A stretch of DNA of 64,000 nt, taken from the NCBI GenBank assembly GCA_025765595.1, contig JAIVFH010000150.1:1-64000 (forward strand). The letters are read 5' to 3'. Made by a program: the position numbers and the translations under genes. The stretch is from Obelidium mucronatum. Lineage: Eukaryota; Chytridiomycota; Chytridiomycetes; Chytridiales; Chytriomycetaceae. Under the pieces are notes generated by a model. That model was not told the origin of the DNA, made no database searches, and saw only the letters and a list, made by a program, of their open reading frames with translations. Shown in pieces: positions 47,350 to 51,606 of this stretch. Positions within the stretch are counted from its first letter, which is position 1, and each line of letters starts with the position of its first letter.

Positions 47350-48873
47350 TCAACTCAACTGACAGACTTCATACTCGGTAATGTCAGCCGCACAGCACGA
47401 ATTGTCACTCCCTGAACAACCAAGAAACTCAGCCGATGTGATCCCATTCCCCAAATACCCACACCCCAACTGCGATGAGCACTTGTTTTTACAAATACAC
47501 AAATCATGACCACTCCCAAATGCTGGCCCATACCCATGCAACCCAGCCATCTGAAACTCCTTGACTTCCGGGTCAAGCGCATGTATATCCAACACCATCA
47601 CGCCTTGATTCTTGAACTTGATTGAAAACAAAAACGCCTCCTTGACTGGAATATCTTCTTCCTCCGAAGACCACGCGGAATCGCCATACCCACCAACCAA
47701 CTTCCCATTTGCCAACTTGATCAACGTGACGGTATTCACTTTCCCATCACAAGCCTCGTGGAACGCGCGGGCCGAGAACCCAGACCCCGAGCCACGAAAC
47801 AAGAGTTCAGCTTCCAACGACTTTTGCTGTAATCTGGGCTGGATTCCATTGATTTCTGCGGTCAGGCAAGTCAACAACTTTTGAATGTTTTTGCGGCACA
47901 ATATTTTGGATTCCCAGAGTGGGGGCGCGTTTGCAATCGATTCAAAGTGATCACGGATGAAATCGCGGAGGTATTCGGGGAGGAGAAAGTGGTATGGAGT
48001 TACAAGTGATTGGTATTCCTGGAGAGAGAGGGAACATAACCCGACGAGTGAGAGAATGGGTTTTGTATCTTTTTGTGCGGTTTCGATATTAAAGTCGGCT
48101 GTTATACCGGACCCAACGGAAATATATTCGGTTTCTTGTAAGGATTTGGACCATGCAATCAAGACTTCCCAGCGATGCGCGGCTGTGAAGGAAGGAGTGT
48201 TTTGGAAAAACTCCTTCACGTTTTCAGCATTCATTCCTGCGAGCCATTCGCGGCCGGCTACCAATGATTCCAGGAGGTTGGCTTTCATGATGGAGGCGGC
48301 GTGTTCCTGGGGATGAGGCATGTTTAACCGTCCACAGAAATGGTACAACTCAAGAGCATTTGAAGCCGTGAGTCCTCCTCCGTTTCCTCCTTCTTGTTGT
48401 GAGAACATATGATCAACACATTGAATTTTGAAATCCTCAAGGAGGATCTGGTCTGCAAACACAGCAGCCTCCATCACCAAGTCAGACTGAATCTCAGCTG
48501 AATCTGAATATAAATACTCGAGAATGCTATCCATCACTTGCACACGAACATCAGGGTGTTTGAGCACCGCTCGGATATACATGAATTCACTGCTTGTTTT
48601 GAAATCGGCGAGGACGGACTTTGGGATTTCCAACTTTGATTTTGACTTCCAACGAGACGAGAGAGCGCTCTTGAAATATTCGGACTTTGAGGCGAGAATG
48701 TTTGCGTGGGTGTAGAAGGGCGTTTGGGACTTTCCGACGAGGAGGAGGACATCGGCAAATTGCTTATCGTTTCGCAGTGATTTAAGTGTTTTTGATGCAT
48801 TTGAAGTTTGGTTTGTGATGCGGAGGCAAGGGAGAGGTGTGGGACTTTGAAGGGGTGCGTTTGGACCAAGCAT
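47350..48873 (-). CDS. BTB-BACK-TLDc protein
   Basis: This 507-aa intact single-exon protein has an N-terminal BTB domain ('DKQFADVLLLVGKSQTPFYTH', 'ILASKSEYFKSALS', 'VMDSILEYLYSDSA'), a BACK-like helical middle ('LESLVAGREWLAGM', 'TAAHRWEVLIAWSK') and a C-terminal TLDc-like domain ('FHEACDGKVNTVTLIK', 'LVGGYGDSAWSS', 'AFLFSI'). Near the end are several Cys ('CICKNKCSSQLGCGY', 'CSGSDNSCC') within the TLDc region. BTB domains often recruit Cullin 3, and TLDc proteins are linked to oxidative-stress defence and V-ATPase regulation. Its function here is inferred only from domains. It is convergent with the broken paralogue at 45806-47216. Confidence 0.82.
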   Translation of the reverse strand: MLGPNAPLQSPTPLPCLRITNQTSNASKTLKSLRNDKQFADVLLLVGKSQTPFYTHANILASKSEYFKSALSSRWKSKSKLEIPKSVLADFKTSSEFMYIRAVLKHPDVRVQVMDSILEYLYSDSAEIQSDLVMEAAVFADQILLEDFKIQCVDHMFSQQEGGNGGGLTASNALELYHFCGRLNMPHPQEHAASIMKANLLESLVAGREWLAGMNAENVKEFFQNTPSFTAAHRWEVLIAWSKSLQETEYISVGSGITADFNIETAQKDTKPILSLVGLCSLSLQEYQSLVTPYHFLLPEYLRDFIRDHFESIANAPPLWESKILCRKNIQKLLTCLTAEINGIQPRLQQKSLEAELLFRGSGSGFSARAFHEACDGKVNTVTLIKLANGKLVGGYGDSAWSSEEEDIPVKEAFLFSIKFKNQGVMVLDIHALDPEVKEFQMAGLHGYGPAFGSGHDLCICKNKCSSQLGCGYLGNGITSAEFLGCSGSDNSCCAADITEYEVCQLS

Positions 48874-48941: not shown

Positions 48942-50716
48942 CTACTTCTTGACTTCCCGAATAACCGCATCAGACGGTTTATCTGCATCAATCCGTACAC
49001 ACACAAACGAGGGAAACCGTGGGATCCCATCATTCGTCAATTCCTGAAACCGATACGTAACAATAGCCCCAATCTTGGGTGGATCCTGCCTCTCCTTATC
49101 ACTCAACCCAGTCCCAATTTTAAACTCTTTCCCACTCGCCATTTTGCATTTGAGACTTCCAGTTACATTTGCGTTCCTCCCCTTTCCCGGCTCGTAACCC
49201 ACCACGATCGCTTCTGCGTCGTAGAAGCTCTTGACTTTGAGTAACGTGGTGCTGCGTTTCCCAATGTAAAGAGATTTGGGTTCTCGGAGCATGAGGCCTT
49301 CTCCGCCTTTTGATTCGACTTGTTTGAGGGCTGTGAGAATGTGGTCGGCGTTTTTGCATTTTTCGTGGTGGACGATTTTGACGTGGCTTGCTTTTGTTGA
49401 TGTTGAGGAGGAGGAAGCAGAGTCTGTTGTATAGTCGGTGTTGGGATATAACGCCTTGAGTTTTTCGATTCGCGTTTCGAATGGGAGATCTGCCAGAGTC
49501 GGAGAATCAAAAACTTGATAATCAACCTTTTTCCAGTGTGGAGAATTGATGGTCTGGAAAAAAAACATGAGTTCGTGAAGAGCCAACTCGAAAAAAACAC
49601 CAACCTTGACGACAGATATCGTTTCACTGAACTTTCCCCTACCTCCGAATAACTCTCCATCCAAACTCAAATCTTTAGGCATAGCGTCCTTGAACCAATC
49701 TGGAGCAGTAAAAGGGTTCCCCAACCGAGATACAAATTCCCGCCTCTCATGATCCCAAAACGCGCGAACTCCATCGAGCTTTTCGCTAATCCACCATCCA
49801 GTCGGATCAAGTGATCCCGGTTCGTATTTCTGAGCAAGGAGAAGTGCTGGTTGTTTGAGTTTGATTTCATCACGCTTTGCTCTGTTCTTTGCCGTAAATT
49901 TCTCTGCGGCATCTTCATCGTCATCTTCTGGGTCGGATTTTTTAGAAGCCTTCTTCTTTGATGCGGCTTTTTTGGATCCGGATGGTGTATCGTCGTCTCC
50001 ATCTGAATCGGAAGCTTCGGCTTTTCTCTTCTTGGGTTGTGGAGCTGTCGCCTGAAGTCCAGGGCGCAAGAGTCCTTGAGGGTTCTTGAATTTCAACCGT
50101 GCGTTTTCGTATGCATCTCCAAGAATGATTTTCAAATGCTTACAGGAACGAGCTATATTTTTGTGAGTGGATGTTGTGATTAAGGAATGAGTCATCTCTT
50201 TTTACATAAACGCCTTTTCTTACCATCGATGGGAAGTTTGTTCATTCTCCATCCCTGGCAAGTACAATAATAATGGTCGTGTGTTCGTTTGATTGTGTAG
50301 TTTCCTTCTTGGATCTTTTCACCGTCCGCCAAGAGAGTTTTGGGTTTGATTCCATTAATGTTTGTGATATCTGTTGCGGGAGAATCTGAATCGTCATTCG
50401 ATGTTGAAGTTGAAGGGTCTGCCACCGGTGAACTTTGTGGTTTTAATATTGAGGGGCTGGGTGGAGACACGGCATTATTGACTGGTGGAGGGGCAAGAGT
50501 AGAGACTGGTGGAGCAGTTGTGATTTTCTTTTTTGCAGCTGCTGTGGATGAGCTTGTAGAGAGTTGTGCTGGGTGGCTAAAGTCCAGCAAGTGTTGCGGG
50601 TTCTTCTGGATCAGTCACAAATATAACTTACAAATATGCTGTATAGTATATTATTCATCGATGCTTACTCTGAAGCAACTGGCTCCGTATTTGCAAGGCT
50701 GGATGGACAAGGACAT
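48942..50716 (-). CDS. PBZ-SWIM ATP-dependent DNA ligase
   Basis: Four exons (50716-50669, 50605-50224, 50152-49605, 49553-48942) give about 529 aa. Exon 1 plus the start of exon 2 encode 'CKYGASCFRKNPQHLLDFSHP', an exact C-x5-C-x6-H-x5-H PBZ finger, the poly(ADP-ribose)-binding motif of APLF/CHFR. After a Ser/Pro-rich linker comes a SWIM finger ('YYCTCQGWRMNKLP' then 'CKHLK', CxC...CxH) split by intron 2. A Lys/Asp-rich linker leads to a compact ligase core: motif I 'SEKLDGVRAFWD', 'LSLDGELFGGRGKF', 'GGEGLMLREP', 'LLKVKSFYDAEAIVVGY', and an OB-fold part 'FKIGTGLSDKERQDPP'. The core resembles small bacterial LigE-type ligases. It probably seals nicks at PAR-marked damage in nucleus or mitochondria. 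Confidence 0.85.
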
Positions 50717-51043
50717 GGCAAGAACTGTTGGGCGAATCAGATTCAACGAAACTGAACGAAATCTGTTTTGAAGAGAAAACATTTCCTTTCAAACATTCTC
50801 AATTTCGCTTTATACTTTCGGACTTGCTTTGCCACACTTGAACTTTTCTGGACGTTGTTGCTAAACCCACAATCTTGTGTTATTTCCAGATTTATGAATA
50901 ATTTATTCGAGTTCACTCGATAAGATCACAAGTCAGAGCGATGACTGCCAGTAAAGTCTCAACGTCCACCGGAAGCTTCCGATGTTTTCCGCTGTTAAAT
51001 TTTCTTTTCTTTTCCCCCAAATCACTTTCAACGCAACGCAAAA
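50717..51043. other. Divergent promoter region between ligase and GCV3
   Basis: The two genes are transcribed away from this stretch. No ORF of note, repeat or RNA gene is seen. Confidence 0.45.
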
Positions 51044-51606
51044 ATGTTTGCCCGCATCGTCACCCGCTCCCTGCGCGTCCGTCCAAGCATCCTCACCCTG
51101 CGCGGCTATGCCACCAAGCGCTTCACAAAGGACCACGAGTGGATCTCAGTCTCTGACGGCATTGGCACTTTTGGCATTTCCGACTATGCGCAAAAGGCGC
51201 TGGGCGATGTTGTGTTTATCGAACTGCCAGCGGTGGGAAACACTTACGCCAAGAAGGGTGGGTGCTTTTTTTTTGAGTGTTGTGAGTGTGTGTGTGTGTG
51301 TGTGTTTGACAACCAAGAAACAACAGACAACATTTCTGCTGTTGAATCCGTCAAGGCAGCTTCTGACATTTACGCTCCAGTCTCTGGAGAAGTCGTTGCC
51401 GTCAACACTGAACTCGCTGATGAACCATCCCTGATCAACTCGAGCCCAGAAGAGAACGGTAAAAAAGCGTGATTTTTGAGTCATTTTCATGATACTGACC
51501 CACCCTTGAAATCACAGCATGGATTGCAAAGATCAAATTGTCAAACCCAGAAGAACTCGAATCTCTGTTGGACGAAGTTGCCTATGCAAAGCACATTGAC
51601 GAATAA
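51044..51606 (+). CDS. GCV3: Glycine cleavage system H protein
   Basis: This mitochondrial lipoyl carrier of the glycine decarboxylase complex has three exons (51044-51257, 51327-51458, 51518-51606) and about 144 aa. The N-terminus is Arg-rich without acidic residues ('MFARIVTRSLRVRPS'), a mitochondrial presequence. The H-protein core has 'FTKDHEWISV', 'GISDYAQKALGDVVFIELP', the lipoylation site 'VESVKAASDIYAPVSGE', and 'PSLINSSPEENAWIAKIKL' across intron 2. The first intron contains a short TG repeat (about 51287-51304). Confidence 0.95.

What the first reader, a model, noticed from the sequence alone, without database searches (positions are those of the whole stretch)
48942..50716. DNA ligase with an N-terminal PAR-binding zinc finger and a SWIM finger
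The first exon, too short to stand out alone, supplies the two Cys of a PBZ finger. The next exon supplies the two His, giving an exact C-x5-C-x6-H-x5-H with the usual 'RKNP...FSHP' residues. A SWIM finger and a compact LigE-like ligase with motifs I-V and an OB fold follow. A ligase that reads poly(ADP-ribose) directly would combine damage recognition and sealing, which in animals is shared between APLF or XRCC1 and LIG3. I do not know of this combination as a described fungal system.
Basis: partly seen in the sequence, partly recalled or inferred. Interest (0 to 1): 0.85.

Follow-up and report, generated by a model that had tools for sequence, protein, structure and literature searches.

The report
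PAR-reading DNA ligase in chytrid fungi
A chytrid fungus carries a DNA-sealing enzyme with a built-in finger for poly(ADP-ribose), a chemical flag of DNA damage, so one protein could both find a break and close it; similar enzymes are described in a few animals and soil fungi, and this is a further, SWIM-finger-bearing form of that kind.

Summary
On the minus strand (50716-48942) four exons encode 529 residues: a PBZ finger (Pfam 46.8 bits, cut-off 22.7), a SWIM finger, and a Lig E/Lig K-type ATP-dependent ligase. Introns split both fingers. The second allele keeps exon 1 unchanged. Of 21 listed zoosporic-fungus homologues, 13 show the whole PBZ and two more show it broken by gene-model errors at this intron. 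The genome also encodes WGR-PARPs, PARG and a CHFR-like PBZ protein.

Best reading: a nuclear ligase recruited to PARylated breaks. PAR binding is inferred.

It is not wholly new: PBZ on Lig K/E is in print for bdelloid rotifers, other animals and Mortierella (PMC6264785, PMC10665377). Neither main text mentions SWIM or chytrids, and a 2014 survey found no PBZ in Fungi (PMC4245714, passage).

The boldest by-product: bacterial relatives are SWIM-ligase(-WGR) proteins. Five sequences are fused to a PARP catalytic domain, and in the 15 bacterial WGR-PARP loci fetched a macrodomain gene follows, usually with retron type XIII-like genes. So this ligase core is repeatedly coupled to ADP-ribosylation. 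New variant of a known kind.

The parts
50669..50716 (-). Exon 1, ATG at 50716; first half of the PBZ finger (C8, C14, R16)
   Evidence: identical in allele C51
50606..50668 (-). Intron 1, GT-AG, phase 0, splits the PBZ
   Evidence: same position retained in P0006
50224..50605 (-). Exon 2: second half of PBZ (H21, H27), linker, first half of SWIM (C130, C132)
50573..50695 (-). PBZ finger C-x5-C-x6-H-x5-H, residues 8-27 (interrupted by intron 1)
   Evidence: Pfam PF10283 46.8 bits
50136..50266 (-). SWIM finger, residues 130-149 (interrupted by intron 2)
   Evidence: pattern; invariant Cys/His in A1; below the Pfam cut-off
50153..50223 (-). Intron 2, GT-AG, splits the SWIM finger
49605..50152 (-). 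Exon 3: second half of SWIM, basic NLS-like PKKRKA (residues 183-188), ligase motifs I and III
49554..49604 (-). Intron 3, GT-AG
48942..49553 (-). Exon 4: ligase motifs IIIa, IV, V, OB fold, stop
49230..49808 (-). DNA_ligase_A_M adenylation domain, residues 259-434 (interrupted by intron 3); motif I EKLDGVRA at 49784-49761
   Evidence: Pfam 48.2 bits
48993..49190 (-). DNA_ligase_OB_2, residues 448-513
   Evidence: Pfam 104.7 bits
50717..50782 (-). Possible in-frame upstream extension of exon 1 (22 codons from ATG 50782) resembling a mitochondrial presequence; speculative

Best explanation
It is a nuclear, ATP-dependent, Lig E/Lig K-type DNA ligase that brings itself to damage. A DNA-dependent PARP modifies proteins at a break. 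The N-terminal PBZ finger, on a long flexible tether, binds the ADP-ribose chain and raises the local concentration of ligase. The SWIM finger beside the catalytic core gives this compact ligase, which has no usual N-terminal DNA-binding domain, extra grip on DNA or on a partner. The core adenylates and seals the nick. Shown here: gene structure, domains, conservation, and PARP and PARG genes in the same genome. Inferred: zinc and PAR binding, recruitment, nuclear location, the role of SWIM, nick sealing by this protein.
For: PBZ over the Pfam cut-off with both zinc pairs. PMC6264785 (Fig. 12 legend, passage) names APLF Y381, Y386 and R387 as PAR contacts; by my own mapping the first and third are kept here (Y10, R16) and the second is Phe (F15). 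Mean identity of the window protein to 11 chytrid relatives is 62% over the PBZ, 13% over the adjoining linker, 59% over the adenylation core (the 11 were chosen because their models hold a PBZ). SWIM Cys/His and catalytic residues are invariant in the 40 rows of A1. AlphaFold on P0028 (Gonapodya) with A1: mean pLDDT 86, block means 82-89 over PBZ, 91-97 over SWIM, 89-98 over the core, linkers low. Foldseek: the four best are Lig E; 6gdr TMt 0.92. PARP catalytic and WGR matches lie together on C5, C215 and C16; PARG on C43, C246, C113. Relatives bear other ADP-ribose or break-sensing modules on the same core: macro, BRCT, FHA_2, C-terminal PBZ, and in bacteria WGR and PARP. The C-terminal-PBZ relative AvLigE-B is reported to be a functional, radiation-induced ligase (PMC10665377, abstract and passages).
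Against: No expression, binding or localisation data. A single PBZ should bind PAR far more weakly than a tandem pair (PMC6264785, passage: 1000-fold). F15 replaces a Tyr; P0004 has Ile there. Apart from the 21 zoosporic fungi, only 1 of the other 99 rows (P0119) has a full PBZ; most of those rows are mushroom-forming fungi with the SWIM-ligase, so the enzyme works without a PBZ in many lineages. The genome also has LIG1, LIG4 and a diverged third ligase, so the role may be redundant. The NLS is by eye. SWIM is below the Pfam cut-off.
Confidence: 0.68

Rival explanations
1. The PBZ is a structural or protein-binding finger (or binds mono-ADP-ribose or another partner) and does not steer the ligase by PAR; recruitment goes through SWIM and the core.
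For: Single finger; the second aromatic contact is Phe here and Ile, Thr, Lys, Ser or others in some relatives. Most listed non-chytrid fungal homologues lack PBZ and keep SWIM.
Against: Zinc ligands are exact C5C6H5H in all 51 N-terminal copies matched (my search pattern allowed looser spacing); the position after the second Cys plus one is Arg in 42 of 51 and C1+2 is Tyr or Phe in 48 of 51. PARP and PARG genes are present.
Confidence: 0.17
2. Dual-targeted ligase, LIG3-like (recalled analogy): translation from ATG 50782 adds a mitochondrial presequence, translation from ATG 50716 gives a nuclear form; the main role may be mitochondrial.
For: In-frame 22-residue extension MFSLQNRFRSVSLNLIRPTVLA, no acidic residues, also in allele C51. 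Only 0.7% of 20,000 simulated leaders had such an extension (criteria set after seeing it). Kinetoplastid Lig K is mitochondrial (recalled). No LIG3 with zf-PARP was found: the zf-PARP and ligase N-domain matches lie on different contigs.
Against: Listed chytrid models start close to the PBZ, except P0118 and P0031, so conservation of the extension could not be tested. A nuclear PAR-binding finger makes little sense for a purely mitochondrial enzyme. An out-of-frame upstream ATG is also present (sequence).
Confidence: 0.1
3. The first exon is not part of the mature message; the true protein is a SWIM-ligase without PBZ, as the annotated Obelidium model P0002 suggests.
For: P0002 (95% identical) starts inside exon 2 at MNKLPID.
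Against: That start would cut the SWIM finger in half; exon 1 and the splice sites are kept between alleles; the finger recurs in 13 of 21 models.
Confidence: 0.03

Closest known systems
AvLigE / LigK of bdelloid rotifers and Mortierella Lig E (PMC6264785, PMC10665377)
   Same: Lig E/K core (PF01068 + PF14743) plus PBZ; implicated in DNA repair
   Different: There PBZ is C-terminal and no SWIM pattern was found next to the core in the rotifer and Mortierella rows looked at; here PBZ is N-terminal with SWIM between. In the core tree those rows fall in a different group (100/99, 20 rows) from the chytrids, though a single eukaryotic clade is not rejected (AU p 0.377).
Lig K of molluscs and a hemichordate with N-terminal PBZ
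   Same: N-terminal PBZ plus SWIM plus Lig E/K core (P0126, P0271, P0281, P0284, P0288, P0339); N-terminal PBZ was noted for animals in both papers
   Different: Two PBZ copies there, one here; SWIM is not mentioned in either main text
Bacterial Lig E (6gdr, 8u6x, 4d05)
   Same: Catalytic core and OB fold
   Different: The PDB Lig E chains are 258-297 residues, without room for PBZ, SWIM and linkers; Lig E is usually described as periplasmic (recalled)
Bacterial SWIM-ligase-WGR proteins (Planctomycetota, Myxococcota and others)
   Same: SWIM immediately before the same ligase core
   Different: WGR after the ligase instead of PBZ before it; 3 listed proteins and 2 loci also carry PARP_reg and PARP
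LIG3-XRCC1 and APLF of animals
   Same: Couples PAR recognition with end sealing (APLF PBZ is the closest solved finger)

Membership tests
Lig E / Lig K ATP-dependent DNA ligases | PF01068 adenylation domain followed by PF14743 OB domain | tested here: met
   48.2 and 104.7 bits, both over cut-off; relative P0028 passes NCBIfam PRK09125.1
Lig E / Lig K ATP-dependent DNA ligases | No N-terminal ligase DNA-binding domain (PF04675) | tested here: met
   not among the families reported at E up to 1
Lig E / Lig K ATP-dependent DNA ligases | Fold of solved Lig E | tested here: met
   tested on homologue P0028: 6gdr TMt 0.92, rmsd 1.8
Lig E / Lig K ATP-dependent DNA ligases | Nick-sealing activity | not testable with these tools
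   motifs intact only
PBZ finger | C-x5-C-x6-H-x5-H and Pfam PF10283 over cut-off | tested here: met
   46.8 bits against 22.7
PBZ finger | PAR-contact residues (two aromatic, one Arg, after APLF) | tested here: inconclusive
   Y10 and R16 kept, F15 in place of Tyr (contacts from PMC6264785 passage, mapping mine)
PBZ finger | Binds PAR | not testable with these tools
   needs protein
SWIM finger | C-x-C-x(n)-C-x-H | tested here: met
   residues 130-149
SWIM finger | Pfam PF04434 over cut-off | tested here: not met
   not reported at E up to 1; 14.6 bits in P0001, cut-off 19.6
LIG3 | zf-PARP, ligase DNA-binding domain, BRCT | tested here: not met
   none among the families
APLF | FHA plus tandem PBZ, no ligase | tested here: not met
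   one PBZ, no FHA, ligase present

The most novel reading that the evidence does not exclude
The SWIM-ligase is an old, cross-domain 'ADP-ribosylation-coupled' ligase. In bacteria it is SWIM-ligase with WGR, and sometimes one chain of SWIM-ligase-WGR-PARP, i.e. sensor, writer and sealer together, in an operon with a macrodomain protein and retron type XIII-like genes. In eukaryotes the writer was split off and replaced by readers (PBZ on either side, macro, BRCT, FHA).
Probability: 0.4. Interest if true: 0.82.

Novelty: new variant of a known kind. Interest (0 to 1): 0.55.

Why it matters
A single-chain reader-plus-sealer makes the question whether PAR directly recruits a ligase testable without XRCC1 or APLF, in a fungus. 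It also mends a point in the literature: PMC4245714 (passage) reports that PBZ follows PARP everywhere except Fungi, where none was found; this genome has PBZ in a ligase and in a CHFR-like RING-CRD-PBZ protein. The bacterial PARP-ligase fusions, if confirmed, would tie ADP-ribosylation, end sealing and a retron-type operon together, which bears on the origin of PAR-based repair.

Tried and rejected
Conserved neighbourhood of free bacterial SWIM-ligases with PARP: rejected; in 65 of 80 fetched loci the ligase stands alone, with no WGR-PARP match within the DNA held (0 of 65). One of those loci (L069) has RT and SWIM genes like those of the operon, one (L086) a weak ADP-ribosylglycohydrolase match.

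Two independent eukaryotic origins of the PBZ-ligases (N-terminal with SWIM, C-terminal without): suggested by the tree but not established; one eukaryotic clade is not rejected (AU p 0.377), and the branch joining the N-terminal group is weak (83/53).

XRCC1 absence: PF01834 gave no match, but no control genome rang either, so inconclusive. PF20266 was a wrong accession of mine and says nothing. Single-sequence AlphaFold was useless (pLDDT 33); the run with alignment A1 replaced it. Literature on retron type XIII was not held. No fungal genome DNA other than the window's own was reachable, so exon 1 in the shortened models P0002, P0003, P0008, P0087 could be checked only for P0002 (allele C51).

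The PBZ/SWIM tally rests on patterns and a 150-residue limit: it misfiles P0126 (has SWIM), P0252 (has a C-terminal PBZ) and several fungi whose SWIM lies further off.

Full report
The gene. Three GT-AG introns removed from the minus strand of 50716-48942 leave a 529-codon frame. Pfam finds PBZ at residues 7-29 (46.8 bits), DNA_ligase_A_M at 259-434 (48.2) and DNA_ligase_OB_2 at 448-513 (104.7). A SWIM-type C-x-C...C-x-H stands at 130-149, below Pfam's own detection here, and a basic stretch PKKRKA at 183-188. Intron 1 splits the PBZ and intron 2 the SWIM finger. The short first exon is easily lost by annotation: P0002, named Obelidium mucronatum and 95% identical over 71% of the query, starts inside exon 2 at MNKLPID.

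Which genome. The only other OB_2 match of the window's genome lies on a contig of 248,776 bases, the contig length listed for P0002, so the window is very probably Obelidium mucronatum or the same assembly. That copy is an allele: 97% identical DNA over the 2.2 kb compared, same neighbours, exon 1 unchanged, and intron 1 longer by 12 bp at its end but still ending AG before AAG. Its reading frame is broken near the start of the OB domain; I cannot tell an allele lesion from an assembly error.

Is the finger conserved. One search found 2157 proteins at E up to 0.001 among 7993 scored candidates (a capped set) and listed 120. I judged 21 of the 120 to be zoosporic fungi by their source names. 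Of these, 13 have the exact PBZ, 2 (P0001, P0006) have its second half with the first half replaced or pushed away by a mis-modelled intron at the same R|KNP junction, and 6 show none: P0002, P0003, P0008 and P0087 begin near or inside the SWIM region, P0009 and P0095 have neither finger and look like a second Chytriomyces copy. Of the other 99 rows one, P0119, has a PBZ. Against 11 chytrid relatives chosen for having a PBZ, identity is 62% over the PBZ, 13% over the next 67 residues, 55-58% over the SWIM region, 59% over the adenylation core and 70% over OB. A finger conserved like the catalytic core beside a freely drifting linker is under constraint. All 51 N-terminal copies matched are exact C5C6H5H although the search pattern allowed other spacings.

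Fold. AlphaFold on Gonapodya P0028 with 40 sequences gives mean pLDDT 86: ordered PBZ, ordered SWIM, ordered ligase, disordered linkers. Foldseek's four best matches are Lig E chains; 6gdr fits with TMt 0.92 and 1.8 A. No PBZ or SWIM match appeared among the 50 rows shown.

Is there PAR to read. The genome has PARP catalytic matches on C16, C5, C215, C6 and C36, WGR beside the PARP matches on C16, C5 and C215, and PARG matches on C43, C246 and C113; some are probably allele pairs. C80 holds, on one strand within about 1.6 kb, a RING, a CHFR-type zf-CRD (75.6 bits) and a PBZ (26.2 bits), i.e. a CHFR-like gene, with a second PBZ match on C274. Other ligases: C13 is closest to LIG1, C14 to LIG4, C16 is diverged. 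zf-PARP matches on C24, C1 and C255 lie on other contigs than the ligase N-domain matches, so no LIG3-like fusion was seen; XRCC1 could not be judged.

Wider family. In 336 proteins with the core gathered from three searches (each a list of the best 120, plus the window protein and two Lig E fragments), the script counted 30 with N-terminal PBZ and SWIM, 2 with N-terminal PBZ and no SWIM (one of them, P0126, does have SWIM), 38 with C-terminal PBZ and no SWIM, 232 with SWIM and no PBZ, 34 with neither by its limits (known misfilings in Tried and rejected). So PBZ occurs on either side of this core, and SWIM goes with the N-terminal form. The bacterial rows share the same SWIM (C-x-C-PAW-RNQ...R-T-CKH) directly before the core and most have WGR after it (Pfam columns). 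A tree of 91 cores puts the chytrids together (91/95), the window gene with Siphonaria (100/96) and Rhizoclosmatium (100/95), the C-terminal-PBZ rows with rotifers, amoebae and Mortierella in another group (100/99), next to bacteria (93/86). Long branches, two poor outgroups and weak deep support mean that the number of PBZ gains is open; one eukaryotic clade is not rejected.

PARP-ligase fusions. Three listed proteins (P0202, P0208, P0211) read SWIM - ligase - OB - WGR - PARP_reg - PARP. A scan of bacterial and archaeal genomes with P0208 gave 188 related stretches, 80 kept; L040 (Thermoanaerobaculia MAG) and L041 (Acidobacteria MAG) encode the fusion in one frame of 964 and 914 codons without stops. 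The catalytic part is closest to PARP4 (175.5 bits; PARP2 93.7), and the residues I recall as the H-Y-E triad can be read in it. In all 15 loci with a WGR-PARP gene (2 fused to the ligase, 13 not) a macrodomain gene follows; a HEAT-like gene is matched in 13, a SWIM gene in 12, an RT in 10 and an ADP-ribosylglycohydrolase in 3, several loci being cut by contig ends. Pfam confirms Macro, RVT_1 and ADP_ribosyl_GH in L040; PADLOC names the RT, SWIM and HEAT genes RT_XIII (543 bits), SWIM_XIII (589) and WGR_XIII/HEAT-ARM_XIII (356/183), i.e. parts of retron type XIII. Both fusion loci are metagenome-assembled, and the other 65 loci, which hold a SWIM-ligase, have no WGR-PARP match in the DNA held. 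By Rosetta-stone reasoning the fusions tie this ligase to ADP-ribosylation; that is inference.

Literature. PMC6264785 (2018; passages and section 9 read) describes Lig K with PBZ, usually N-terminal to the core, in A. vaga and others. PMC10665377 (2023; abstract, outline and passages read) shows AvLigE is functional and induced by radiation, and reports PBZ in few eukaryotic Lig E. In both main texts SWIM, chytrid, Planctomyc- and WGR have no occurrence; supplements were not open to me. PMC4245714 (2014; passages) found PBZ with PARP everywhere except Fungi. PMC5966428 (passages) on bacterial PARPs has no occurrence of ligase or SWIM. Ten searches of the library showed me no paper, by title and abstract in the listings, on a chytrid PBZ-ligase, a SWIM-ligase or a PARP-ligase fusion; one search failed and is not counted. 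The library lacks most subscription papers.

Verdict.

Noticed in passing
L040:8001-18632, L041:8001-16759, and L042-L054: Bacterial operon: WGR-PARP (in L040 and L041 fused behind a SWIM-ligase), macrodomain gene, HEAT-like gene, SWIM gene, RT, sometimes an ADP-ribosylglycohydrolase; PADLOC labels place it with retron type XIII. An ADP-ribosylation arm of this retron type deserves its own study.
   Followed up: partly
window 50717-50782 (-): In-frame upstream ATG giving MFSLQNRFRSVSLNLIRPTVLA ahead of the PBZ, presequence-like, also in allele C51; 0.7% of simulated leaders match criteria set afterwards.
   Followed up: partly
L030:4215-5772 (-) (contig C80), with a second PBZ match on C274 (L031): CHFR-like RING, zf-CRD, PBZ gene in the same fungus, against the statement that Fungi lack PBZ.
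   Followed up: partly
L029 (contig C51:113800-117800): Second allele of the ligase; its frame is broken near the start of the OB domain, and the public model P0002 lacks exon 1.
   Followed up: partly
P0222: Protein with BRCT, Lig E core and a C-terminal macro domain: another ADP-ribose module on this core; source unnamed.
   Followed up: no
P0122, P0123, P0144, P0279: FHA_2-like domain plus PBZ plus SWIM-ligase, i.e. APLF-like modules on the ligase chain; P0144 is Diplonema papillatum; FHA_2 is below its cut-off in P0123 and P0144.
   Followed up: no
P0199, P0171: Bacterial SWIM-ligases with 5 and 4 matched WGR stretches.
   Followed up: no
L123 (contig C24) and L124 (contig C1): zf-PARP on an ORF that looks by eye like FHA-RING, and on one that looks by eye like DnaJ-zf-PARP-BRCT.
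   Followed up: no
window 50999-51472 (+) and 47353-48849 (-): Neighbours: a glycine cleavage H-protein gene, divergent from the ligase about 0.3 kb away, and a BTB-TLDc gene on the same strand downstream.
   Followed up: no
L062, L101: Records titled Comamonas and Klebsiella pneumoniae hold SWIM-ligases otherwise seen here in Myxococcota and Planctomycetota; the titles may be misassigned.
   Followed up: no
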